From Glandiceps talaboti (lineage: Eukaryota; Hemichordata; Enteropneusta; Spengelidae), in assembly GCF_964340395.1 (NCBI RefSeq), contig NC_135550.1, forward strand, positions 33,324,176-33,388,175: 64,000 nucleotides of DNA, written 5' to 3'. The first letter of the stretch is position 1, and each line of letters begins with the position of its first letter. Made by a program: the position numbers and the translations under genes. Shown one piece after another: positions 501 to 31,685 of the stretch. Below the pieces are notes generated by a model. That model worked only from the letters and a program-made list of their open reading frames with translations, did not search any database and was not told where the DNA came from.

Positions 501-3500
501 ATACTTTGTTGATATCAGTAAGACCAAAGACAGGAGATACGTGACCATCAATAGTAGTTGTAGGTCTTCATCTGAAGTTAGACTTATAGATTGTGAGTGT
601 GAAAACAGTTCACCAGTGTTAGTACAGACAAGACAAGATGGAGTGGAGTACTTTATAGAGCATAGTAATGGAATGTTCTACATTTTGACCAACAGTGATG
701 GAGCTAAAGATTACAAGGTGATGATGTGTTGTGTGTGTGTTGGTAGTTTCTGTAAGTGTACAAGGTTATGATGTGTTGTGTGTGTTGGTAGTTTCCCTAA
801 GCTTACATGATGATGATCTGATGTGTATGTGTGTTGGTACTTTCTGTAAGCTTAGAAGGTGATGGTCGGTGTGATGTGTGTGTAGGTATCATTCAATTGA
901 TCAATCATTCAACCAAATAATAAATCAATCAATAAATCAATCAATCAATCGATCGATCAATCAATTACATGCTCACTGCCCCCTGTGGTTTAACATGTGA
1001 TACACATTTTACAAATACTGGTCAAAACCAACTCAATTTTAAATGTGAAGTCTTCTAATTGCTGCAATGTGCATAGTAGTAGTAGTACCATATTTGCTGT
1101 AATATGCATAGTAGTAGTAGTACCATATTTGCTGTTTGCTTGACAGATCTCTTGCTTAGTCTTTTGGATTTTGTAGATTATTGGCACTTTTGAAAACCCA
1201 ATAAAATGACAATATATCACATATATTGTGATTGGTTACTATTAAAGTGTGTTCCAGTGACAATATGTCACATATATTGTGATTGGTTACTAGGTGTGTT
1301 TCAGTGACAATATATCACATATATTGTGATTGGTTACTAAGTGTGTTCCAGTGACAATATGTCACATACATTGTGATTGGTTACTAAGTGTGTTTGACAA
1401 TATATCACATATATTGTGATTGGTTACTAGGTGTGTTCCAGTGACAATATGTCACATATATCGTGATTGGTTACTAGGTGTGTTTGACAATATATCACAT
1501 ATATTGTGATTGGTTACTAGGTGTTCCAGTGACAATATGTCACATATATCGTGATTGGTTACTAAGTGTGTTCCAGTGACATACCATATAATTCTAGTCA
1601 GCGAAGAAAAGAATTTGCTTGACTCAAAGTAATCTGAAATGTTGTGAGTGTATTAAATGACCAAAAGTTCTTTCTATTTGATGTTACAGTTCATGAAGGT
1701 GCCAAGTGATAGCGCCCTCACAGCTGAACATTGGCAGACTATTTATATAGCAGAATCTAACACAAAGATTGTAGATATGGATATATTTGATACATATTGT
1801 GTTCTACTACTCAAAATGAATGGTCTTGCCATAGTCAAGGTTCTTCCTTTAGACAATTCATCTGATGGAAGAACAGTGCAGGTATGTTTTGTCTATATGT
1901 ATCTGTTATTGTCGAATACTTTCTATTCACATTCATTATTTCTACCAACTTTGTAAAAGTGTAACATCTAAGGAAATTTCAACAGGACTTATTGATGATT
2001 CTTACAGTAAGTAAGTATGAAATGCAAATAAAACTTTCTATTTTCAGTAATATTGCATCAAAAATGGTGTACTCAAGAGTAGTTTTGATGCCATCCATGG
2101 ATGACGTGTACTCCACAATAGTTATCCCCCTAAATTATTATACAGCCATGTATAGATTCATAAACTTCAGGGGTTTATCCCCCTAAATTATTATACAGCC
2201 ATGTATAGATTCATAAACTTCAGGGGTTTATCCCCCTAAATTATTATACAGCCATGTATAGATTCATGCAGAATGAAGTATTAGTGATTTTTTTTCATCT
2301 TATTACTGATCACAAGTGAGATGCAGTCTATGTAATTTTCGGAACTGTAGAAATGTAACCATTAATAATTATTTTCAAGCTGTACATCTCCACCAGCATC
2401 ATAAATCCACAGGATAATCAAGTCTTTATTTATTTTCCAGCTTCCTAGCTTTGCCAGTACCTTAGACCCAAAGGAAAACCCAGACTTCTACTCCACAAAT
2501 TACAAGTTTACCATATCATCGCCATGCCTACCAGATGTCCCATGTGAAGTAGATCTGAAGTCATTTCAACTCAAGGAGTCTTATATTGATGATAGTCATA
2601 ACAAGTACAAATGTCAGAGATTATTCACTGCCAGCAAGGTATACCAATAAATTTATCATGCAAAACTATTATTAAGTAGTTTATATTCTCCAGTACCATA
2701 TGTGGGTATTGTTTTAGTTTGTTTTTTAAAAAATGAACTTCTTTCCCAATATTGTAGCATGTAGTGTTATAAAGTCTCCATTTTTAGCCCCAACGGGCAA
2801 AGCCCGTTGGGGCTAACTATGTTGGGTCCCGTCCGTCCATCCTTCCGTATCCACCTGTAATATGCATGCGCCAATTTCAACTTTCAACCAAACCTGGTTA
2901 CAAATGTCAGATGTTATGGAGGGCATATGCACATCACTTGGTTTTACAACCCTCATGACAACAGCGAAATGGCAGCCATATATGTCATAAGTAATCACAC
3001 TTTGCCCAATAACTCTTGAAGTTTAACAGATAGAGACCTCATTCAAGTGTCTTCACCTATTTTATCAATCATGAGCTTTTTAATGGCACATTGACTTTTG
3101 ACCTTGACCTCCATCTTCAAGGTCAAATAGCCATATTATTGTCAAAGTGTGTATATATATCTCTCATATGCATTTACTGATTTCAACCAAACCTTGTACA
3201 AATGTCAGATGCTATAGTCAGCATATACACATCACTTCGTTTCACAAGTGACAACCCCAATGATAACAGCAAAATGGCGGCCATATTTGTCATAAATCAC
3301 ACTTTGCCCAATAACTGTTGAAGTTTAACAGATAGAGACCTCACTCAAGTGTCTTTACCCATATTACCAATCATGAGCTTTTTAATGGCACTTGACTTTT
3401 TGACCTTGACCTCCATCTTCAAGTTCAAATAGCCATATTATTGTCAAAGTGTGTATATATATCTCTGGTATGCATGGACTGATTTCGACCAAACCTTGTA

Positions 3501-6500
3501 CAAATGTCAGACTCTATAGTCTGCATATCCCATCACTTCGTTTCACAACCCCAATGATAACAGCAAAATGGCGACCATATTTGTCATAAATATTCACATT
3601 TTGGCTGATCTTGACAATTAACAGATAGAGACCCTATTCAAGTGCCTTTGTCATGATTATCAGTGATGAGCTTTCTAATGACACACTGACTTTTGACCTT
3701 GCCCTTCATCTTCAAGGTCAAATAGCTGTCTTCCTATTTTGAAATCATTAAGATAATATAAATATAAATGCCAATGTGCCTGAAATTATCAAGGATCTAC
3801 ACATAATAGATAAGAAATGAACAACCCTTTCAGGTGTTGTCAGTGTATTTTTTTGATTGCCTTAAAGGCCATGCCATAGTTGTCCTTTTTGAACTGAACG
3901 CCTGCAGCATATGTACAAACTAAAGAACTTGTAGTAGTCACTACAAGAAATGCTTTTGGGGGGGGGGGGGGGGCTGGGCTATGTCTTCCCTGAAGATTTG
4001 TGTTAATTTCTTTAGCTGCTCCTTTCCTAGTTTGTGTTGTAGGCTTAAAATCCTCATCAACAAACATTGTGCTTTTCTCTATACAAGGGTACTTCCTCCA
4101 CAAATGCCATCCCTACACTATCTCAAGTATTGAAAGTCAAGTCACATACTCATAATATATAATGAATACTATATTTAATATCTATAGGATGGTACAATGG
4201 TTCCAATGTCAGTATTCTACAAGACAGATTTACAACTTGATGGTAGTCATCCTATGTTAATACATTGTTACGGTGCATATGGCAAGGATTTAGATATGGA
4301 ATATAAACCAGGAAGCCTAACACTGCTAGATAGAGGCTGGATACTTGCATTTATACATGTCAGGTTAGTTGCCATGGATACTTGAATTTATACATGTAAG
4401 GTTAGTTGCCATGGATACTTGCATTTGTACATGCTATGTTGTGTAAATGAAAACAGTACAACATTCAGTGTTTGACTGTCTTATTGTCTAGTTCAAATGC
4501 ATTTCCTTTTCTCTGCATGTGCTGATCCCTATTGTTGACTGTGTGTATGCTTTGTGTTGTCAAGGTTACAGGTATATCTTACAAGTAGTCATGTCAGTTT
4601 TACCATAGACCCAGGGTCATATTACATAGATGTCATGTTTGACCAGTGAGTGGAGAAGAATATGAACAGAATGCATTCTACTTCTACTGGTAGGACAAAA
4701 TCAGTGACATTAAACATTGGAAAACGTTTTAATTTTGATAAAATAATGTCTTCATTTTCTTAACAGAGGTGGTGCAGAACTTGGTAGACAATGGTATTAT
4801 GACGGACGATTGGAGAAGAAACATAAAAGTTTTGAGGTTAAAAAAATCATATTATAAGAAACCACAGAACAAAATGACTTAATTGAACCAAATTAAAAAA
4901 TTAAAAGCCCATGTACCCCGGTAGAGTCTCACGTTATTTTCCATAAATAGACACTTTAAATACACAAATGAATATTGATGAGATGGGTATTGTACAGTAT
5001 ATTAAAACAGCAACTGTTGTTATCATATTGTATTATTATCATGTCATCATGTTACATATTGCATGGTCAGGCCTATTGCATGGTCAGGCCTACATTATCA
5101 AATAACAACCATTGCATATTGCATGGTCAGGCCTACATTATCAAATAACAACTGTTACATATTGCATGGTCAGGCCTACATTATCAAATAACAACTGTTA
5201 CATATTGCATGGTCAGGCCTGCATTATCAAATAACAACTGTTGTCATCATGTTACATATTGTATGGTTGGGCCCACATTATCAAATTTTATGCTGAAAGC
5301 CTCATAAACACTCAATCTGTCCTAAGAAGAACTGAGTATTTGTATTCCTCACATAGAAAAGACTTTGTGACTTAATTGCAATGTCACTGTGTATAAGTTT
5401 AGAACATAAAATTACTGTTAGACAACACAAATGTTATTAATCCATTAAGTTTCTAGCAGGCTGATACGGTATTGAATGACCCATCACATTCTAAATTTTG
5501 TGATTATTTTTGTAGGATTTTGAAGCCTGTGTAGAACACCTATATGACACAGGGTATTCTACCAGTGCATTGACTGCTGGGTATGGAGTCAGTGCTGGTG
5601 GCTTGCTGTTGGCAAGTGTATGTAACAGATCTCCACATCTGCTCAAAGCTGTAATATTAAAGGTACGGATTCCCATGTCTTTGTACATTAAGCAGGGAGA
5701 ACAGTAGGATTTCACTTATTTAGTATTCATTGCTGTAAATGTACATCTTGAAATATCACTCTTTCATATGGCTGTACTACAAGCTCAAACTGAGAAATGA
5801 CAAATATAAAAGTTACAGTCATGTATCATGATGGTCCAATGAAAATGACACCTAGAAGTTACACCTGTGTGTGACAGTTTTTGACGAATAAAAAAACAAA
5901 ATTGTTATTGTAACCCTGTATGTCTTAATTTATTCTACAGGTTCCATTTGTTGATGTGTTAAACACTATGTTGACCCCATCGTTGCCATTGACAACACAA
6001 GACTATGGAGAATGGGGCAATCCATCACAAGATGAACACATGTTTGATTACATTAGAAGTTACTGTCCATATCAGAATGTCACAGAACAGGTATTACAAT
6101 AATGCACTAACTGATACATAACATGAAGTGCTAACAAGCCAAGATGATATATTATGCCTGTCATGTTGAAGGCATATTATCAATCTTTTTTTTTTCTGAT
6201 AAGACATCTTCATGTTTTTATTTGTAGATATATACCCACAAGGTGAAGTGGACTTATTCTGCAAATGACTTCAATCATGCTATTAGTCAATATAGTTGTG
6301 GTATATATTGTGGGTACAATCTACAAGCAAAATGCCTTGATAGTCTGATCAAACCCCATAATAGAATCTGAAATCAAAGTGTAGGGGAATGCTAGGAATT
6401 GTGTGTTAATAGTGTACACTATTAGTGCAATGGTATTGTAAGTCATGTGTAAATCAAAGTAATGTCTTGGGTATAATAGAAATGTAACAAATGTTGTGAC

Positions 6501-8236
6501 ACAATATTGAATGGAAAGTTTACAGATTGGACCGCAGACCATTCTTCAACTGTTTGCCTTTCTGAACTGTTTATTTTCTTATCTACACTGACAGCATCTT
6601 CCATCTTTCATTTTGCACAACTGAATCCTAATTCCCAGTGAGAATCTATCTATCTGTATGCATATAGGGTATGTTGTGTGTATGTAGAGGAAATAATTAA
6701 CTCCCAAAAAATTATTGTGGTCTCACTGTCTCACCAATTCTCTTCATTATCAGACACTTATGTCTGTCTTTACGTATTAAACCTATTTTGAAGTGTTTGG
6801 GACTACAGTTTTGTCATAGTAACTAGATTATCTTAAAGACATTTGACCCAGTCCTCCTGATAATGGCATCAGATAAAGCAATGATGGCCATGACCCCCTT
6901 GGTAACACTTAAGTGTTTTCTGTCGTTAGACCTACCCATCAATGTTGGTGACTGCCAGTATGAATGATATCAGAGTACCATTCTGGGCTCCACTAAAGTA
7001 TGTAGCCAAAAGAAGACACTTCACTACTTGTAAAGATCAAAGTTTACTACTATACCAGTTTAATACAGGTGCCGGACATACTGATGATGATGGACATGAA
7101 CAGGTTAGCTACATACTTCTTGATTGCATGTTTACATGTTTGTGTGTACCAGAGTGCATGTCTGCAAGTTCTTCTACTGTCGTAACTCACTGTATAGTAG
7201 TACATGTTTGTGTGTACCAGAGTGCATGTCTGCAAGTTCTTCTACTGTGGTAACTCACTGTAGTACATGTTTGTATGTCCTAGAGTGCATGTCTGTAAGT
7301 ACTTTTACTGTAGTAACTCACTGTAGTACATGTTTGTATGTCCCAGAGTGCATGTCTGTTAGTACTTCTAGTACTGTGGTAACTCACTGTAGTACATGTT
7401 TGTGTGTACCGGAGTGCATGTCTGTAAGTACTTCTACTGTGGTAACTCACTGTAGTACATGTTTGTATGTCCTAGAGTGCATGTCTGTAAGTACTTCTAC
7501 TGTGGTAACTCACTGTAGTACATGTTTGTATGTCCTAGAGTGCATGTCTGTAAGTACTTCTACTGTGGTAACTCACTGTAGTACATGTTTGTATGTACCG
7601 GAGTGCATGTCTGTAAGTACTTCTACTGTGGTAACTCACTGTAGTACATGTTTGTGTGTACCGGAGTGCATGTCTGTAAGTACTTCTACTGTGGTAACTC
7701 AATGTAGTACATGTTTGTATGTCCCAGAGTGCTTGTCTGTAAGTACTTCTACTGTGGTAACTCACTGTAGTACATGTTTGTGTGTACCGGAGTGCTTGTC
7801 TGTAAGTACTTCTACTGTGGTAACTCACTGTAGTACATGTTTGTGTGTCCCAGAGTGCTTGTCTGTAAGTACTTCTACTGTGGTAACTCAATGTAGTACA
7901 TGTTTGTATGTCCCAGAGTGCTTGTCTGTAAGTACTTCTACTGTGGTAACTCACTGTAGTACATTAATATACTACATTAAATTAGCATGTATACCTTTCA
8001 ATGATCTGTCTGTGTTTTGAGAATAGTGTGTGATGAACACATTACAGTAAGTATAACAACTAAGCGCTGTTTTTAGAATCATACAGTGTGTGTGATGAAC
8101 ACATTACAATGAATGCTAAGTGTAGCAACTAAACCGTTGTACAGATTTACTTATTATTGTCAAACCTGGTGTATTCTTTCAGACTGCCTTGGAGTATGCC
8201 TTCCTCTACAAAGCCCTGGGACTATCTTTGGAATAG
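501..8236 (+). CDS. PREPL: Prolyl endopeptidase-like serine hydrolase, C-terminal 9 exons (5' end outside window)
   Basis: PREPL is a cytosolic S9A-family alpha/beta hydrolase with esterase/thioesterase activity, linked in vertebrates to vesicle and AP-1 trafficking. Coding exons: 501-717, 1690-1881, 2441-2638, 4188-4363, 4767-4836, 5516-5662, 5941-6090, 6930-7103, 8183-8236 (stop TAG 8234-8236). All junctions are GT-AG and phases agree throughout, giving 458 codons. By eye the protein follows human PREPL: beta-propeller end (exons 1-3), then the hydrolase domain ([43 protein letters not shown]). The triad is present: Ser in GVSAGG (codon 5591-5593), Asp in MNDIRVP (6966-6968), His in GAGHTDD (7077-7079). 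Roughly 250-270 N-terminal residues must lie upstream; bases 1-500 read as intron. Exons 1 and 4 have tandem copies of their own donor region. The family is certain from many collinear motifs. Confidence 0.95.
714..890 (+). repeat. Tandem copies of the PREPL exon (501-717) donor region
   Basis: About four units of 37-48 bp starting at ACAAG|GTGATG, the real exon end and 5' splice site. Unit 2 reads ACAAG|GTTATG, unit 4 AGAAG|GTGATG; unit 3 has lost the junction. Each unit also carries a TTTCTGTAAG-like second potential donor. Confidence 0.7.
893..965 (+). repeat. (AATC)n simple repeat
   Basis: Irregular ATCAATCAATC run in PREPL intron 1. Confidence 0.85.
1045..1135 (+). repeat. Two-copy 39-bp tandem duplication
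   Basis: The stretch containing GCATAGTAGTAGTAGTACCA followed by TATTTGCTGT occurs twice side by side. Confidence 0.7.
1205..1585 (+). repeat. 42-50-bp minisatellite in PREPL intron 1
   Basis: About eight units built around GACAATATATCACATATATT and GTGATTGGTTACTA, alternating between forms with and without a GTTCCA spacer. The intron then continues to the exon at 1690. Confidence 0.85.
2118..2270 (+). repeat. 53-bp tandem triplication in PREPL intron 2
   Basis: Three nearly identical units containing TCCCCCTAAATTATTATACA and CATGTATAGATTCAT. Confidence 0.85.
2780..3735 (+). mobile_element. Dispersed element with palindromic head and three ~300-bp internal repeats
   Basis: It begins with a hairpin (AGCCCCAACGGGC / GCCCGTTGGGGCT, 2787-2815) followed by GTTGGGTCCCGTCCGTCC. 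The body repeats a block of about 300 bp three times. ACAAATGTCAGA recurs near 2900, 3200 and 3500, each followed by an ATGGCGGCCAT-like word and TTGACCTTGACCTCCATCTT. No protein is encoded. Related copies lie at 10420-11245 and 33880-34565 (opposite strand), with a truncated head at 32653-32930. It is non-autonomous; the superfamily is not resolved. Confidence 0.6.
3958..3973 (+). repeat. Poly(G) tract
   Basis: Sixteen consecutive G in PREPL intron 3. Confidence 0.9.
4339..4440 (+). repeat. 37-bp tandem copies of the PREPL exon 4188-4363 donor region
   Basis: The last 25 bases of the exon plus GTTAGTTGCCAT of the intron recur at about 4376 and, degraded, at about 4413. The second unit keeps a usable donor (ATGTAAG|GTTAGT). 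Confidence 0.85.
5045..5285 (+). repeat. 43-56-bp minisatellite in PREPL intron 5
   Basis: Five or six units containing CATATTGCATGGTCAGGCCT and ACATTATCAAATAACAAC. Confidence 0.8.
7125..7970 (+). repeat. 63-bp minisatellite in the last PREPL intron
   Basis: About 13 units of 63 bp (one is 66) starting about 20 bp after the exon donor at 7103. The unit contains GTAGTACATGTTTGT, AGAGTGCATGTCTGTAAGTA and TGTGGTAACTCACT. Because 63 is a multiple of three, long open frames exist on both strands, but they are repeat artefacts, not genes. CTGTAAGTAC within each unit resembles a 5' splice site. Confidence 0.9.
8025..8135 (+). repeat. Imperfect ~65-bp tandem duplication before the last PREPL exon
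   Basis: GTGTGATGAACACATTACA followed by an AGTATAACAACTAA-like stretch occurs twice. Confidence 0.6.
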
Positions 8237-8382
8237 CTGACAGTATAGCCAAAATGATGAGCATATATACAAACTTCTCTTCCAGTATGATGACGATATG
8301 TACTGCTAGTAAACAATTCATATCACGTTGTCATGGAAATCCTTTTATAGGTATTTTATACAAATCTTGAAAGATGAGGCTC

Positions 8383-8388
8383 AATAAA
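8383..8388 (+). terminator. PREPL poly(A) signal AATAAA
   Basis: AATAAA lies 147 bp after the PREPL stop and is followed by an A-run at 8401-8410, so the 3' UTR is about 165-175 nt. It lies only 32 bp from the opposing POLR2G signal. Confidence 0.75.
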
Positions 8389-8419
8389 AGTGTATTTATA
8401 AAAAAAAAAGTTGATGTTT

Positions 8420-8425
8420 TTTATT
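8420..8425 (-). terminator. POLR2G poly(A) signal (TTTATT on + strand)
   Basis: Reverse-strand AATAAA about 150 nt past the POLR2G stop codon. Cleavage 10-30 nt further on would fall near 8390-8410, at or inside the 3' end of PREPL. Confidence 0.6.
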
Positions 8426-8574
8426 TCTGAAATGTTTTACTATATTTACTTTCTAGACTAAGAAACACAGTTATATCCAAATTTTAAAAAATATGATGGA
8501 AATGTACATATTGTTGGAAAAATAAACTGAAAGGACTGGCAGTTGTAATCTTGACAATAAACTTGATACTTTGC

Positions 8575-21965
<13,391 letters not shown>

Positions 21966-22335
21966 GATGAATCGTACTATCTCCTTGTTTTAATACGAGC
22001 TGACGAACCAAAACGGAAGTGCCACTAAACACAGCGCCCTCAACATAGCAAGTTAGCAACCCGTGTGTGTTTTCCATTCACTCACTTATCCACTTTATCT
22101 TTTCATCAGCATGTACGGCCACAGCAAATGATATATAAATGAATAGTTAGAGTCGAAGTACTTCATTTTTTAAACACCATCCATGAAAATAGGGCATTAC
22201 TAATTATTTCAAATTTATGAAGTTGAACGAATTAATGGAGAATAGTGCATTATGGGTAGGTCATATTTGGGGTCATCCTTCAGAAACACATGCGATGCGA
22301 AATATGCACATAACCAATACGTGAAATTAAGTAGT
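21966..22335. promoter_or_regulatory. Bidirectional promoter between POLR2G and MRPL4
   Basis: The POLR2G ATG (reverse strand, 21963-21965) and the preferred MRPL4 ATG (22336) face away from each other across about 370 bp. The stretch is richer in CpG than the flanking introns. An ETS/GABP-type ACGGAAGTG lies at 22013-22021, a motif typical of TATA-less housekeeping and nuclear-mitochondrial gene promoters. No TATA box is evident. An in-frame upstream ATG for MRPL4 lies at 22252. Transcription starts cannot be read from sequence. Confidence 0.65.
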
Positions 22336-25300
22336 ATGAGTCTTTCAAATGTATTCAGATTTATTGTAGGCAAAGGAACAAAGATTAGTAGATTATCGAC
22401 GTGTCAGTATGTACAAACACAGGTAAGGTATTAACATATATTAAATTGTAAATTCTCATTTTTACAGGGGAGCATGATCAAGATGCAAATTCAATGTAGA
22501 TCATTTCTGTTTACTGGAGCAGAAATCAACATATCACCTACACACACACACACACACACACACATTTCATTGTATTACTTTACTCCTGGAATACATAACA
22601 CACATAATTTACAAAATATTCACATGTGGTTACAATATGATGTAGTAACCCATATTGAAAATAATTGTTTATAATTTGGTGATAAAAGCAGAGATCTCTG
22701 GTTGATCCATAGATAAATAAATAATTAACTAATAAAATATTACATGTAAAAGCTAAAAGTGTTTGCTTTCATCTGAATTCTACAATGAGTCAGATTCTGT
22801 TCAGTATTCTGTTCAAAATAATTGTTGTACAAAGCACTTTTTGCATTCCTGCAAGAACTGAAATAATATAATAATTGTGAAGTCATAGAAATTTAATTTA
22901 TAATTCTAGCCTATGCTGTATATACATTTATACATGTAGCACACATCTCTCATTATTATTTACATTGTACAGAGTTTATCGACATCACCTTCAAATCATA
23001 AGAATGGAGATTCCGTAGGTAACTTTCACATGCAAGATCCTGAATTAGATGAAGCTTCAGAAAAAATTCAAAAAGGTGTGTAGCATTTCATGTTATTCAG
23101 TAACTTTTTATGTTTTTCATGTTATTTACAATGACCATATTTATTATTATATGTATTGTGTATTATTGTTGGCAATATCCAAGGAAATCAAAATTTCTCT
23201 AATTGAACCATGCACAAACCAAGTTATTTTCTGTGAACAGAAAATATGGATTATATTATAATCCACATTTTCTGTTATCATTATATACTTTGGTCTTTCC
23301 ATGTCTTGACAACTAAGTCTATGTTACTGGTTCTGTTTTGCTCTCAATACAAGTCAAAATGTTCAAAAGTGCCGTAATTTTTCCTGATTTTTCACAAATT
23401 TTGCATGCGGAAGTATAATAACATTATTCCACAATATTTGTCTTTATTCATCTGGAAAACACTCATGTCATAAGGGTTTTGTCACTATTTGTCTAACAAC
23501 TTGTATTGACAAGGTCCCTTAGGTCACTCATATTATAATTCCTTGGCAGAAGAAAGAAATATATTGGAGAATAATATATACATGTACCAGGGTAATATTT
23601 TCATTGTAGTACAGTAACATGGCAATGTGTCTCAAAGGTATTCATTTTACCCATTTTGTCAGCTTCCCAGTTATCATGTTTTGTATGTTAACATCTGTTC
23701 GCAATAAAATGTGACAAAACATAATCAACTTAATAAATGCAGACATGCAACATCACAAACTTGCTCGCTTTACATACTTTTGACAACCGTGTTTGGTTTT
23801 TACAGATTATGTATCAGCTAAAATAAGATCCAGTCTTCCCTTGATAACATCAAGGCCTTTGAAACAGTTACCATTTCATGTACAACCTAAACAAGCATGG
23901 TTAGAAACACTTGGCAGCAAGGAAGATATAAAACTAGGTCTGATTGATCTACATCCAGATGTATTTGGTACCTATCCCAGGTTAGAAATGATTGAATACT
24001 ATGACAGAACCCCATGCCGTGTGAGTGCAAGTGTGGCATACTCTAGGGAACACTTTCACAATCATAGCAAGTGAAAGTGCAGCAGAAAACAATGCATGCA
24101 AAAGTGCAAATACCCATAAGTACCCACACCCTGCACTCACATGACATGCATCCTCATTTATGCAATAATGTTTTTCGGTATTGTACTGCAGTGCAAATAC
24201 CACTAGAATGCATGTGCTCTGATGCAAGTAATCTCTGGTGCAATTAATCTCTGGTACATGTGTAATAACATGAGGTTATTACTCTGTCTTCTGTTCAAAC
24301 CATGAATCTTATAAACTAACCCAAGAGGTAGTGTCCAAGAAAATATCAAACATTTCATAAAGTAAGATTCATCCTATGTTTAAGAAATAAGGTGGCCATA
24401 CACTAAATCCATATATGTATCACACTTGCATTTGATGGTTTTGGATCTTGAATTACTCATGCCAAACATTACATATCTTGATTTCTTTGATTTTCATAAT
24501 ATTTGCTTACAGTATTTGCATTACATGTATTACCATAAGTAAATAATCTTTCTACATTTTTTGATGTAGTGATATATATTGTATACATATGTATTTCAGG
24601 GGTGAACAAAGCATTTTGTGAACTGGTGGTCCCCGGACCAGTGCCTTAAAAAATCCAGTGGTCCTGCTGAAAGAATTAGTGGTCCCAGGTCCCGCTAATG
24701 TGAAACATTAAATCTTGCCGATGAATCTGTATATTCAGACAACTTTTTAACATAGTTTAGTTATTAACAGTAAGGTACTGGTCCGATGGACCAGACAAGG
24801 TAACATTTGTGTGGTCCGCCCAAAAAAATCGCTAGTCCCGGACCCAGGACCAGTGGATTTGTTCACCCCTGTATTTACATCATATGTAGTGATCTATATT
24901 GTATACATATGTATTTACATCATATGTAGTGATCTATATTGTATACATATGTATTTATCGGTACATCATATGTAGTGATCTATATTGTATACATATGTAT
25001 TTACATCATATGTAGTGATCTATATTGTATACATATGTATTTACATCATATGTAGTGATCTATATTGTATAAATATGTATTTACATCATATGTAGTGATC
25101 TATATTGTATAAATATGTATTTACATCATATGTAGTGATCTATATTGTGTACATATGTATTTACATCATATGTAGTGATCTATATTGTATACATATGTAT
25201 TTACATCATATGTAGTAATCTATATTGTATACATATGTATTTACATCATATGTAGTGATCTATATTGTATACATATGTATTTACATCATATGTAGTGATC

Positions 25301-28300
25301 TATATTGTATACATATGTATTTACATCATATGTAGTGATCTATATTGTATACATATGTATTTACATCATATGTAGTGATCTATATTGTATACATATGTAT
25401 TTACATCATATGTAGTGATCTATATTGTATACATATGTATTTACATCATATTTGTCTTTTCTTTTATCTAGAATTGATCTTCTCCACAAATGTCTCCAGT
25501 GGCAGAAAATGTATAAAAAAATTGTAAGTATAGCTCATATAGATTAAACTGAGTAGACTTTGTCTGAAATAAATTGATATATCAATGTATTCATAGAGTG
25601 GATGGTATTGTTGCAAGAAAGGACAGACAAGGTCATGTTATGCCCAATGAGCCATATATTGAGAGGAGACCCCTTTTGGTAATATGCAAAGAGAAGGTCC
25701 CTTTGTCATTCCATGGCTCAAAATCATACTCATATTGTGATGGAACTTGAGTTTATGTAACTTCAATGTACTTCAGAAATTGATTGCCATCCAAATTTAC
25801 CAATATATACCAAATGTACTATACCAATGCCAATACATTATGCATATTTGTTGTTTTTTCAGAATTTTGAGAAGGCAAAAACAAGAGCTGAGATGAGAGG
25901 TGGTGGTAGGAAACCATGGAAACAGAAAGGCAGTGGTAGAGCTCGACATGGCAGTATCAGATCACCTTTATGGAAAGGAGGTACTACACTATCAATACCT
26001 ATTAAATAGTACTTCTACAATTCACCATAGACCCTGGGTCAAACTATATTTTGATAATTATTAATGATTTGATGGAGATAGGAGGCATGTATTAACTTCA
26101 ACTATGTATACATCCAACATTTAGATTAGCAACTACATTTCAGTCAGGTGCTGATTTACTTCTTCTGACATCAAATCTCAAATGCTTTATTAGAGTATCT
26201 AGTGTATCTACGTTAATCCTATTGGATCAGTTAAATGCCAAATAGTACAGTTTTCAAACAAAACAAGAAGTACAGATAAACAAAATCCTATTTGAGGCAG
26301 AATGTCATCAGTAATGTTACTTGTTGTGTATAATTTAGGTCCAATATCTCAATGTTCATTCCTTTATTAATTGACAGGTGGTTCAGCCAAAGGACCTAGA
26401 GGCCCTCTATCTTACTGGTATGTTTTACCAACCAGAGTACGAGAAAGAGGACTAAGGGTTGCATTGACTGTCAAATACTCTCAAGATACAATGCACATAG
26501 TAGATTCTTTAGATATCCCTGTACCAGAACCAGAGGTATGTCTCAGATACAATGCACATAGTAGATTCTTTAGATATCCCTGTACCAGAACCAGAGGTAT
26601 GTCTCAGATACAATGCACATAGTAGATTCTTTAGATATCCCTGTACCAGAACCTGAGGTATGTCTCAGATACAATGCACATAGTAGATTCTTTAGATATC
26701 CCTGTACCAGAACCAGAGGTATGTCTCAGATACAATGCACATAGTAGATTCTTTAGATATCCCTGTACCAGAACCTGAGGTATGTCTCAGATACAATGCA
26801 CATAGTAGATTCTTTAGATATCCCTGTACCAGAACCTGAGGTATGTCTTAGATACAATGCATATAGTAGATTCTTTAGATATCCCTGTACCAGAACCTGA
26901 GGTATGTCTCAGATACAGTGCATATAGTAGATTCTTTAGATATCCCTGTACCAGAACCTGAGGTATGTCTCAGATACAATAATTATAGTAGATTCTTTAG
27001 ATATCCCTGTACCAGAACCAGAGGTATGTCTCAGATACAATGCATATAGTAGATTCTTTAGATATCCCTGTACCAGAACCTGAGGTATGTCTCAGATACA
27101 ATAATTATAGTAGATTCTTTAGATATCCCTGTACCAGAACCAGAGGTATGTCTCAGATACAATAATTATAGTAGATTCTTTAGATATCCCTGTACCAGAA
27201 CCAGAGGTATGTCTCAGATACAATAATTATAGTAGATTCTTTAGATATCCCTGTACCAGAACCTGAGGTATGTCTCAGATACAATGCACATAGTAGATTC
27301 TTTAGATATCCCTGTACCAGAACCAGAGGTATGTCTTAGATACAATGCATATAGTAGATTCTTTAGATATCCCTGTACCAGAACCAGAGGTATGTCTCAG
27401 ATACAATGCATATAGTAGATTCTTTAGATATCCCTGTACCAGAACCAGAGGTATGTCTTAGATACAATGCACATAGTAGATTCTTTAGATATCCCTGTAC
27501 CAGAACCAGAGGTATGTCTTAGATACAATGCATATAGTAGATTCTTTAGATACCCCTGTACCAGAACCAGAGGTATGTCTCAGATACAATAATTATAGTA
27601 GATTCTTTAGATATCCCTGTACCAGAACCTGAGGTATGTCTCAGATACAATAATTATAGTAGATTCTTTAGATATCCCTGTACCAGAACCTGAGGTATGT
27701 CTCAGATACAATGCACATAGTAGATTCTTTAGATATCCCTGTACCAGAACCAGAGGTATGTCTTAGATACAATGCATATAGTAGATTCTTTAGATATCCC
27801 TGTACCAGAACCAGAGGTATGTCTCAGATACAATGCATATAGTAGATTCTTTAGATATCCCTGTACCAGAACCAGAGGTATGTCTTAGATACAATGCACA
27901 TAGTAGATTCTTTAGATATCCCTGTACCAGAACCAGAGGTATGTCTTAGATACAATGCATATAGTAGATTCTTTAGATACCCCTGTACCAGAACCAGAGG
28001 TATGTCTCAGATACAATAATTATAGTAGATTCTTTAGATATCCCTGTACCAGAACCTGAGGTATGCCTTAGATACAATGAATGAATTTTGATATATTTTC
28101 AGTGTAACATTGTGTCAGATACAATGAATGAATTTTGATATATTTTCAGTGTAACATTGTGTCAGATACAATGAATGAATTTTGATATATTTTCAGTGTA
28201 ACATTGTGTCAGATACAATGAATGAATTTTGACATTTTCAGTGTAACACTACATTTTCTCTATGTTACAGTACTTAGAAGATCTTGCAATGGAGAGGTAC

Positions 28301-29600
28301 TGGGGAGGATCTGTCTTATTTATTGATCAGTAAGTGGCTTTCAATACTCTTGACTGATTGTCTCTATGTTTCATCAAGATATGACAAAATAATGCCATTT
28401 TCACTCATATTGTATGTAAATAATTGCCGTCTGAAAACAATGGTACCCCTTTTAATATTTATCAAATGAAATGCACACTTTTTTCTGACAACAAAATTAC
28501 AACACTTAAAGATGCAAAAGAAGGTGTTCATGTCATTGATGCTGAAATGTAACTGGTAATCCAGCTGACACAGTACCAGCTGTCTGGATGTACATTGTAC
28601 ATCTACAGGGGGTGTTCACCTGGTAACATTTATTATACACATTACCAGTTGTCTGGTTGTACATTGTACATCTACAGGGGGTGTTCACCTGGTAACATTG
28701 ATTATACACAGTACCAGCTGTCTGGTTGTACATTGTACATCTAACAGGGGGTGTTCACCTGGTAACATTGATTATACACAGTACCAGCTGTCTGGTTGTA
28801 CATTGTACATCTAACAGGGGGTGTTCACCTGGTAACATTGATTATACACAGTACCAGCTGTCTGGTTGTACATTGTACATCTAACAGGGGGTGTTCACCT
28901 GGTAACATTGATTATTACACAGTACCAGCTGTCTGGTTGTACATTGTACATCTACAGGGGCGTTCAACTGGTAACACTGATTATCTCATTACAGTAAACC
29001 AGTTGAAGAAATGCCATCTAATATCATAGCTGCTACCAATAGGATAAAAACCTACAATGTAATGTCAACAGAAGGTATGTGTCTTAAGAGTTAAAAAAAA
29101 TAGCAGTCTTAGAGTGTTCAGAATTTAGCTCAAGGTGGATCATACTTTCATTGCACATTACACATGATGATTTAGTCTAGCTGCTAGACCTACTGGCAAT
29201 GCTGCTAACTTAAAAAAGTATATTATATCAAAGGTGCTGTCATGGGCTGGTGCTGCACACCAGTGGTACTGTCAACCTCCGATCAAAGTCTTACCACAAG
29301 ACTAATAATGTTGTTGATGTACATTTTTCAGTGTGTTCAATCAGTTTATACAACAAAGACCTCTCAATCTAGATATTATCACTAAGCTTTCATGAACTAA
29401 TCTACTTTACTATTACAGGACTTAATGTGTACAGCATGCTGAAACACTACACTCTAGTTCTCACCCTGGATGCTGTCAATTTTCTTGAAGACCGACTTCT
29501 GTATCACATGAACAGATACACTGGAGATTTGAAGTATGACGTCATAATGTCACAACAGCTAAACAGAATAGATGCCTTCAACAAACAAGTCAAGTCCTAG
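22336..29600 (+). CDS. MRPL4: Mitochondrial large ribosomal subunit protein uL4m, complete, 9 exons
   Basis: uL4m is a structural protein of the mitochondrial large ribosomal subunit. Exons: 22336-22422, 22973-23075, 23806-23980, 25472-25523, 25863-25980, 26378-26535, 28271-28329, 28995-29074, 29419-29600 (TAG 29598-29600). The sum is 1014 nt, 337 aa; all phases close. Using the in-frame ATG at 22252 would give 365 aa. I prefer 22336 because [13 protein letters not shown], rich in basic and hydrophobic residues with no acidic residue, looks like a mitochondrial presequence. Family landmarks: [98 protein letters not shown]. Human MRPL4 is 311 aa. Exon 6 is followed by about 26 tandem copies of its own 3' end plus donor; only the first donor (after 26535) keeps the frame to exon 7. 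Confidence 0.96.
22541..22563 (+). repeat. (CA)n microsatellite
   Basis: Eleven CA units in MRPL4 intron 1. Confidence 0.9.
24540..25450 (+). repeat. 40-bp minisatellite in MRPL4 intron 3
   Basis: Units of TTACATCATATGTAGTGATC and TATATTGTATACATATGTAT, about 16 copies, ending 22 bp before the exon 4 acceptor. A 275-bp transposon interrupts the array after its first unit. Confidence 0.95.
24597..24871. mobile_element. Short DNA transposon with CAGGGGTGAACAAA inverted ends, inserted in the 40-bp array
   Basis: A 275-bp element with a 14-bp terminal inverted repeat and 5-bp target duplication TATTT (24592-24596, 24872-24876). The interior is rich in GTGGTCC/GGACCAG words in inverted arrangement. 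Non-coding, non-autonomous; same kind of termini and target duplication length as the element at 16546-17992. Confidence 0.88.
26485..28068 (+). repeat. 61-bp array made from the MRPL4 exon 6 end and its 5' splice site
   Basis: About 26 units. Each holds the last 50 nt of exon 6 (GATACAATGCACATAGTAGA to CCAGAACCAGAG), the donor GTATGT and CTCAG or CTTAG leading into the next copy. Variants (GCACATAG, GCATATAG, AATTATAG; CCAGAGG/CCTGAGG; one TACCCCTG) recur in the same order 427 bp (7 units) apart, as at about 27550 and 27976, showing a higher-order duplication. Only the first unit is exon. Confidence 0.97.
28069..28255 (+). repeat. 47-bp tandem repeat before the MRPL4 exon 7 acceptor
   Basis: Four units of GATACAATGAATGAATTTTG and ATATATTTTCAGTGTAACAT; each offers an ATTTTCAG acceptor-like site 40-180 bp upstream of the true acceptor at 28270. 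Confidence 0.9.
28553..28985 (+). repeat. ~69-bp array resembling the MRPL4 exon 8 acceptor
   Basis: Six units containing GTTGTACATTGTACATCTA and TTCACCTGGTAACATTGATT followed by ATACACAGTACCAG. The true acceptor reads CTGGTAACACTGATTATCTC-ATTACAG|TAAACCAG, a diverged version of the same junction. Confidence 0.85.
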
Positions 29601-30984: not shown

Positions 30985-31685
30985 GACATCTTGGTACGAC
31001 AGTTAATTTTGGCCTTGGGGGAGTTCTGACATCTTAGGTTAATATGATGTCACGTGGCCTTAGGAGAATTCAGACATCTTGGTATGACAGTTAATTTTGG
31101 CCTTATGAGAGTTCAGACATTTAAGTATGATGTCATGTGGCCTAAGGAGAGTTCAAACATCTTGGTACGACCATAGACAGTGGTGGCCTTATAGAAGAGT
31201 TCAGACATCTTGGTATGACCATAGACAGTGGTGGCCTTATAGAAGAGTTCAGACATCTTGGTACGACCATAGACAGTGGTGGCCTTATTGGAGAGTTCAG
31301 ACATCTTGGTACGACCATAGACAGTGGTGGCCTTATTGGAGAGTTCAGACATCTTGGTACGACCATAGACAGTGGTGGCCTTATTGGAGAGTTCAGACAT
31401 CTTGGTACGACCATAGACAGTGGTGGCCTTATTGGAGAGTTCAGACATCTTGGTACGACCATAGACAGTGGTGGCCTTATTGGAGAGTTCAGACATCTTG
31501 GTACGACCATAGACAGTGGTGGCCTTATTGGAGAGTTCAGACATCTTGGTACGACCATAGACAGTGGTGGCCTTATTGGAGAGTTCAGACATCTTGGTAC
31601 GACCATAGACAGTGGTGGCCTTATTGGAGAGTTCAGACATCTTGGTACGACCATAGACAGTGGTGGCCTTATAGGAGAGTACACA
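30985..31685 (+). repeat. 48-bp minisatellite between MRPL4 and SLC46
   Basis: About 11 clean units (31150-31685) of GAGAGTTCAGACATCTTGGT, ACGACCATAGACAGTGGTGG and CCTTATTG, preceded by diverged units from about 30985. Open frames of 159-221 codons on both strands are a product of the period being a multiple of three. Confidence 0.95.

What the first reader, a model, noticed from the sequence alone, without database searches (positions are those of the whole stretch)
501..28994. Splice junctions are repeatedly the seed of tandem duplications in this genome
Seen: in about 28 introns, four exon ends are tandemly copied together with their own 5' splice site (PREPL exons 501-717 and 4188-4363, POLR2G exon 3, MRPL4 exon 6), and two acceptor regions are copied (POLR2G exon 3 start, MRPL4 exon 8). 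Copy numbers range from 2 to about 26. Known: tandem duplication of an AGGT-containing segment is a proposed route to new introns. Inference: the window catches many stages of junction duplication, which suggests either a local bias for duplication at exon-intron borders or tolerance because the first donor still works. It could be a source of new introns and exons.
Basis: partly seen in the sequence, partly recalled or inferred. Interest (0 to 1): 0.8.

Follow-up and report, generated by a model that had tools for sequence, protein, structure and literature searches.

The report
Tandem repeats straddling splice donor sites
In this animal genome short DNA segments that straddle the end of an exon and its splice donor site are copied in tandem, up to about 26 times; it looks like a kind of repeat already described in lancelets, and here it is seen at donor sites much more than at acceptor sites.

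Summary
Gene models (PREPL, POLR2G, MRPL4, an MFS-like gene) give 26 complete introns. All four claimed donor copies are real. Of two claimed acceptor copies one is real (POLR2G exon 3) and one is not (MRPL4 exon 8).

I tested the claim outside the window. In 26 other loci of the same genome (237 kb), arrays cross 4 of 117 predicted donors and 0 of 117 acceptors. Random placement expects about 0.6 each; P = 0.0015 for donors. Genome-wide, the donor word AAGGTAAGT recurs 20-50 bp apart more often than an equally common acceptor word: 755 pairs among 8,922 against 110 among 9,096.

Against: per site, donors are no more duplicated than intron interiors, and 11 of 16 donor-word clusters show no clear exon.

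Such arrays are known from lancelets as 'mirages' (PMC3087553). Conserved protein joins use the first donor, and reading past it meets an early stop in 7 of 8 arrays. I saw no evidence of new introns or exons. A bias is supported for donors only; its cause (splicing, motif or persistence) is open.

The parts
501..717 (+). PREPL exon whose 3' end and donor (717|718) are copied
   Evidence: gene model; PDB match
707..888 (+). donor-spanning array, about 49 bp, 3.8 copies, 11 nt of exon in the first unit
   Evidence: TRF
4188..4363 (+). PREPL exon whose 3' end and donor (4363|4364) are copied
   Evidence: gene model; PDB match
4338..4433 (+). donor-spanning array, 37 bp, 2.6 copies, 26 nt of exon in the first unit
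   Evidence: TRF
14602..14761 (-). POLR2G exon 3; donor at 14601-14600
   Evidence: gene model; PDB match through the join
13984..14615 (-). donor-spanning array, 36 bp, 17.6 copies, 14 nt of exon in the first unit, open in frame for 17.8 units
   Evidence: TRF
14821..14888 (-). one diverged upstream copy of the POLR2G exon 3 acceptor region (original 14720-14782)
   Evidence: alignment score 41, best of 200 shuffles 14
26378..26535 (+). MRPL4 exon 6; donor 26535|26536
   Evidence: gene model; PDB match through the join
26479..28079 (+). donor-spanning array, 61 bp, 26.2 copies, 57 nt of exon in the first unit
   Evidence: TRF
28568..28984 (+). 70-bp intronic array that stops 10 nt before the MRPL4 exon 8 acceptor; not a junction copy
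   Evidence: TRF; alignment

Best explanation
These are minisatellites whose repeat unit (23-104 bp in the 8 arrays measured) straddles an exon end and its donor, the architecture called 'mirages' in lancelets. Step 1 (inferred): ordinary tandem duplication, by slippage or unequal exchange, copies a segment that covers the junction at no fixed offset. Step 2 (indirectly shown): the first copy still ends the exon correctly, so the conserved protein is kept by using the first donor while later donors lie inside the intron. Step 3 (the lack is seen, the reason is inferred): acceptor-spanning arrays are removed by selection because extra acceptor copies lie upstream and would be met first; donor-spanning ones are tolerated because the right site is transcribed first and mis-splicing to a later donor usually brings an early stop. 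Step 4 (the excess is supported, its cause is inferred): donors carry more arrays than random intron positions because the exon-side copy is protected by selection and stays an intact template that can seed arrays again and again.
For: Donor crossings 8 against 1.26 expected, independent loci alone 4 against 0.56; acceptors 0 against 1.28. The same four independent crossings appear at exon-caller penalties 15, 18 and 21. Donor-word array clusters 16 against 2 for an equally common acceptor word on C1, C2 and C4, P = 0.0006. Homologues align through the joins without insertion. Reading past the first donor meets a stop within 0.2-1.4 units in 7 of 8 arrays. Donor arrays recur in genes matching STK40, a TCP-1 chaperonin, INO80, an AZUL-domain protein and a neuron navigator.
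Against: Small numbers. Per site, donors equal intron interiors. 11 of 16 AAGGTAAGT clusters show no clear exon, so the motif may matter by itself. The acceptor word too exceeds its own reversed control (110 pairs of 9,096 against 51 of 11,932). Donor against reversed donor word is only P = 0.04-0.05 by cluster. One acceptor copy exists in the window, and lancelet mirages occur at both borders (PMC3087553). No RNA was seen.
Confidence: 0.5

Rival explanations
1. Motif effect. GGTAAGT-like words are themselves prone to tandem duplication, wherever they lie, and donors are enriched only because they carry the word.
For: Both donor words pair up more than their reversed controls: AAGGTAAGT 8.5% against 2.4%, CAGGTAAGT 8.7% against 4.3%. 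11 of 16 AAGGTAAGT clusters show no clear exon.
Against: The 8 donor-spanning arrays include donors far from the word, such as AAGGTGATG and GGGGTAAAT. Pair counts are dominated by a few very long arrays; by cluster the excess over the reversed word is P = 0.04-0.05. Only one reversed control per word was run, so word-to-word variation is unknown.
Confidence: 0.2
2. Tolerance only. Arrays form evenly along genes; donor-spanning ones survive because the first donor works, acceptor-spanning ones do not. There is no true donor excess and the counts are luck.
For: Per site, donors equal intron interiors in the independent loci (5 of 106 against 29 of 655) while acceptors are low (0 of 104).
Against: Per event the independent loci give 4 against 0.56, P = 0.0015, and the window 4 against 0.71, P = 0.004.
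Confidence: 0.2
3. Function. Extra donor copies are kept as spare donors or to tune alternative splicing.
For: 26 MRPL4 copies keep the donor word. POLR2G stays open in frame, so later donors there would add multiples of 12 residues.
Against: Most other columns of the MRPL4 unit are as invariant as the donor. Donors with arrays do not differ significantly in strength from 135 others (P = 0.17). In 7 of 8 arrays a later donor brings an early stop.
Confidence: 0.06
4. Intron or exon birth. The arrays are stages in the making of new introns or exons.
For: Duplication of AGGT segments is a published route to new introns (PMC4974935, passages), and lancelet mirages were proposed as one (PMC3087553). 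Each POLR2G unit holds both CAG|G and AAG|GTAAG.
Against: Every array studied lies in one intron of a gene whose protein join matches homologues where checked. No unit was shown to be used as an exon; the POLR2G unit would leave only 27 nt for an intron.
Confidence: 0.04

Closest known systems
'Mirages' of lancelet Adh3, globin and PGBD5 genes (PMC3087553: section 16 read, other passages; PMC3902484: passages; the original Adh3 paper was not held)
   Same: Tandem repeats across exon-intron borders, many copies with AG/GT signals, normal mRNA apparently kept, units of similar size (10-160 bp there).
   Different: Here found in a genome of unnamed species, with a count of donors against acceptors; the lancelet reports describe single genes and both borders.
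[quoted passage not shown] PMC4974935, passages)
   Same: Tandem duplication that multiplies AG and GT signals.
   Different: No new intron position was shown here; the arrays lengthen introns of conserved genes.
Human IFI6 (6-16) minisatellite that repeats a splice donor
   Same: A minisatellite that multiplies the donor of one exon.

Membership tests
mirages (lancelet junction minisatellites) | tandem repeat whose unit spans an exon-intron border | tested here: met
   4 donors in the window, 4 in 26 independent loci
mirages (lancelet junction minisatellites) | copies carry the splice signal | tested here: met
   26 GAG|GTATG in MRPL4 and 17 AATAAG|GTAAG in POLR2G; CCT copies
mirages (lancelet junction minisatellites) | normal splicing is not disturbed | not testable with these tools
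   no RNA; only the conserved joins speak for it
mirages (lancelet junction minisatellites) | copy number varies between haplotypes or cells | not tested
   one assembly, no reads
mirages (lancelet junction minisatellites) | found in lancelets | tested here: inconclusive
   species unnamed; about 35% G+C; no GFP-family match, but that search had no working control
intron gain by tandem duplication | an intron at a position that relatives lack | not tested
   intron positions of relatives were not compared
intron gain by tandem duplication | AG and GT of the duplicated segment used as the two ends of an intron | not testable with these tools
   needs RNA

The most novel reading that the evidence does not exclude
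Donor-side exon ends act as protected master copies that keep seeding minisatellites. Some percent of all donors in this genome (4 of 117 sampled, 95% interval 0.9-8.5%), hence perhaps thousands, stand at the head of a series of near-identical donors. The splicing machinery must then follow a first-site rule on a genome-wide scale, which would also explain why acceptors, where the first site met would be the wrong one, are spared.
Probability: 0.3. Interest if true: 0.75.

Novelty: new member of a known kind. Interest (0 to 1): 0.5.

Why it matters
Series of up to 26 near-identical donors in conserved genes are a natural experiment on how the spliceosome chooses among equal sites. The donor-acceptor contrast is a test: if order of transcription decides, donor arrays should be tolerated and acceptor arrays should not. 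If the donor excess holds genome-wide, exon ends are lasting seeds of minisatellites, which bears on how introns lengthen and perhaps on how new splice sites arise.

Tried and rejected
Rejected: an acceptor copy at MRPL4 exon 8. A POLR2G exon near 13540 that I considered by eye; the VGLFTE exon is at 12719-12769. Crowding of arrays just upstream of acceptors: 4 in the window (P = 0.004) but 0 of 11 arrays in the independent loci. Stronger donors at arrays: P = 0.17. Too few multiples of 3 among periods: 1 of 13, P = 0.04, not corrected for the many things looked at.

Rows dropped and choices made: arrays of period under 10 were dropped before all counts. The quoted independent test used period 20 or more, score 60 or more, 1,000-base margins (17 arrays); the other five settings gave P from 0.0009 to 0.015. 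The null was run only on exons called at penalty 18. L001 lies in and beside the window and was left out. At penalty 15 (146 exons) two further predicted exons, in L002 and L013, are crossed at both ends; they look like false exons inside arrays, but they count as acceptor crossings too. The caller was trained on the window and CCT genes; it finds 20 of 22 internal window exons, 0 exons in reversed L002-L017 against 33 real and 1 in reversed L002-L027 against 117. The 16 first loci stand at round positions that I set on contigs C1, C2, C4 and C5 without seeing them (20 were asked for; the 4 on C3 do not exist). L026 and L027 are neighbours of loci with exons, taken without looking at arrays. 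The 8 CCT regions were chosen by Pfam hits; hits on C26, C13:16531566-16532206, C2:33103780 and C17:3793519-3795189 were not fetched. One of those 8 regions has a crossing.

Papers: PMC3087553 (section 16 and passages), PMC3902484, PMC2206037 and PMC4974935 (passages); others only as listings. Not held: the Adh3 paper under a DOI that I guessed, PMC1783408, PMC2791625.

Full report
Setting. The window is G000:C2:33324176-33388175 of a genome of 590,416,875 bases in 47 contigs. I rebuilt four genes: PREPL (+, 501-8236, 5' part outside), POLR2G (-), MRPL4 (+) and an MFS-like gene (-). All 26 complete introns are GT-AG, after one border of mine was corrected, and the joined frames are open. Pfam and PDB support the first three names; the fourth is my reading.

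The observation. TRF gives 28 merged arrays of period 10 or more in the window, 18 of them inside the gene spans. Four cross a donor: PREPL 717 and 4363, POLR2G exon 3, MRPL4 exon 6. None crosses an acceptor. Alignment shows one diverged extra copy of the POLR2G exon 3 acceptor region, and shows that the array before MRPL4 exon 8 holds no exon sequence. Five of six claimed junction copies stand.

Chance in the window. I collapsed each array to one unit and asked how often a unit of that length, placed anywhere tolerated, covers a donor: 0.72 expected, 4 seen, P = 0.005. This region was noticed because it is striking: its first 29.6 kb are 29% array, against 4.6% in the 16 blind loci. It cannot stand alone.

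Independent test. I fetched 16 blind 10-kb loci, 8 regions of chaperonin (CCT) genes chosen by Pfam hits and 2 neighbouring loci, 237 kb in all, and called exons with a small splice-plus-coding model. Of 117 predicted exons, 4 have the donor inside an array and 0 the acceptor: L007 (23 bp, 6.3 copies, protein not identified), L014 (104 bp, 2.3 copies, STK40, E = 7.6e-52), L023 (85-86 bp, 2.8 copies, TCP-1 family; the name CCT3 is my recall) and L026 (43 bp, 13.8 copies, a weak COR-A match under Pfam's cut-off). Expected 0.56, P = 0.0015. With the window 8 against 1.26, P = 2e-5; acceptors 0 against 1.28. The same four appear at caller penalties 15, 18 and 21; at 15 two doubtful exons are crossed at both ends.

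Genome-wide word test. The pattern search counts a word and the word read backwards. AAGGTAAGT: 8,922 single, 755 pairs 20-50 bp apart (8.5%); reversed 12,217 and 293 (2.4%). CAGGTAAGT: 7,510 and 656 (8.7%); reversed 5,869 and 251 (4.3%). Acceptor word TTTTACAGG: 9,096 and 110 (1.2%); reversed 11,932 and 51 (0.4%). A few long arrays dominate pair counts, so clusters are fairer. On C1, C2 and C4, where the capped lists are complete: 16 AAGGTAAGT clusters, 9-10 reversed, 2 acceptor. Donor against acceptor P = 0.0006; donor against reversed P = 0.04-0.05. The acceptor word also exceeds its reversed control, so words differ for other reasons too.

What the 16 clusters are. I read 520 bases at each. 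Five begin at a clear coding exon end: L031 (INO80, E = 2.8e-19), L040 (AZUL domain, E = 4e-11), L037 (neuron navigator 2, E = 3e-5), L029 (TIM17-like, E only 0.09) and L030 (not identified). Eleven do not; in L028, L032, L033 and L036 the array begins well upstream of the first exact word or fills the flank, so these are less certain, and L028 has an ambiguous exon call. Only 2 of 143 sampled donors have this exact word, too few to say what share of such words are true donors, so this neither shows nor excludes an excess at true donors.

A result against. Asking per site whether the 40 nt around a junction have a copy within 400 nt, donors score 9 of 132 (independent 5 of 106), intron interiors 85 of 826 (29 of 655), acceptors 1 of 130 (0 of 104). 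One long array makes many interior sites positive, which is why I rely on the event count. A reader who prefers sites would say that donors are merely unprotected while acceptors are protected.

How it works. Homologues align through the joins of POLR2G, MRPL4, PREPL and STK40 without insertion, so the first donor must serve the working mRNA. Reading past the first donor meets a stop within 0.2-1.4 units in 7 of 8 arrays; POLR2G is open for 17.8 units with a 12-residue repeat. Where the unit begins relative to the junction looks random, so the junction is covered, not cut. My reading: ordinary duplication, tolerated at donors, purged at acceptors, and kept alive because the exon-side copy cannot decay. 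The last step is inference.

Known background. Lancelet mirages share the architecture: the globin paper describes both borders, RT-PCR suggesting regular splicing, and copy number differing between haplotypes (PMC3087553); PGBD5 is a further gene (PMC3902484). My searches showed no genome-wide count of donor against acceptor mirages, but they cover open-licence papers only. Whether this genome is a lancelet I could not settle: G+C is about 35% and a GFP-family search found nothing, though without a working control.

Verdict. The structure is real and of a known kind. Its donor bias is supported but rests on small numbers. A general junction bias and new introns are not supported.

Noticed in passing
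16546-17992: 1,447-bp element with inverted ends CAGGGCTCGAAATTCG and a 5-bp target repeat TCATA, sitting inside the 29-bp array of POLR2G intron 2, so it is younger than the array.
   Followed up: partly
24597-24871: 275-bp element with inverted ends CAGGGGTGAACAAA and a 5-bp target repeat TATTT, at the edge of the 40-bp array in MRPL4 intron 3.
   Followed up: partly
13984-14615 (-): The POLR2G array is open in frame: 17-18 copies of a 12-residue repeat close to [12 protein letters not shown], so later donors would insert multiples of 12 residues.
   Followed up: partly
28070-28248, 28568-28984, 24870-25451, 11762-11964: Four arrays end 10-29 nt before an acceptor without crossing it; not seen in the independent loci. 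A fifth (416-492) ends 8 nt before the acceptor of a partial intron.
   Followed up: partly
about 21390-21690 (+): Open stretch inside POLR2G intron 1 that looks by eye like the tail of a mobile-element reading frame; not searched.
   Followed up: no
31039-31680: 48-bp array of about 11 copies downstream of MRPL4, outside the genes modelled.
   Followed up: no
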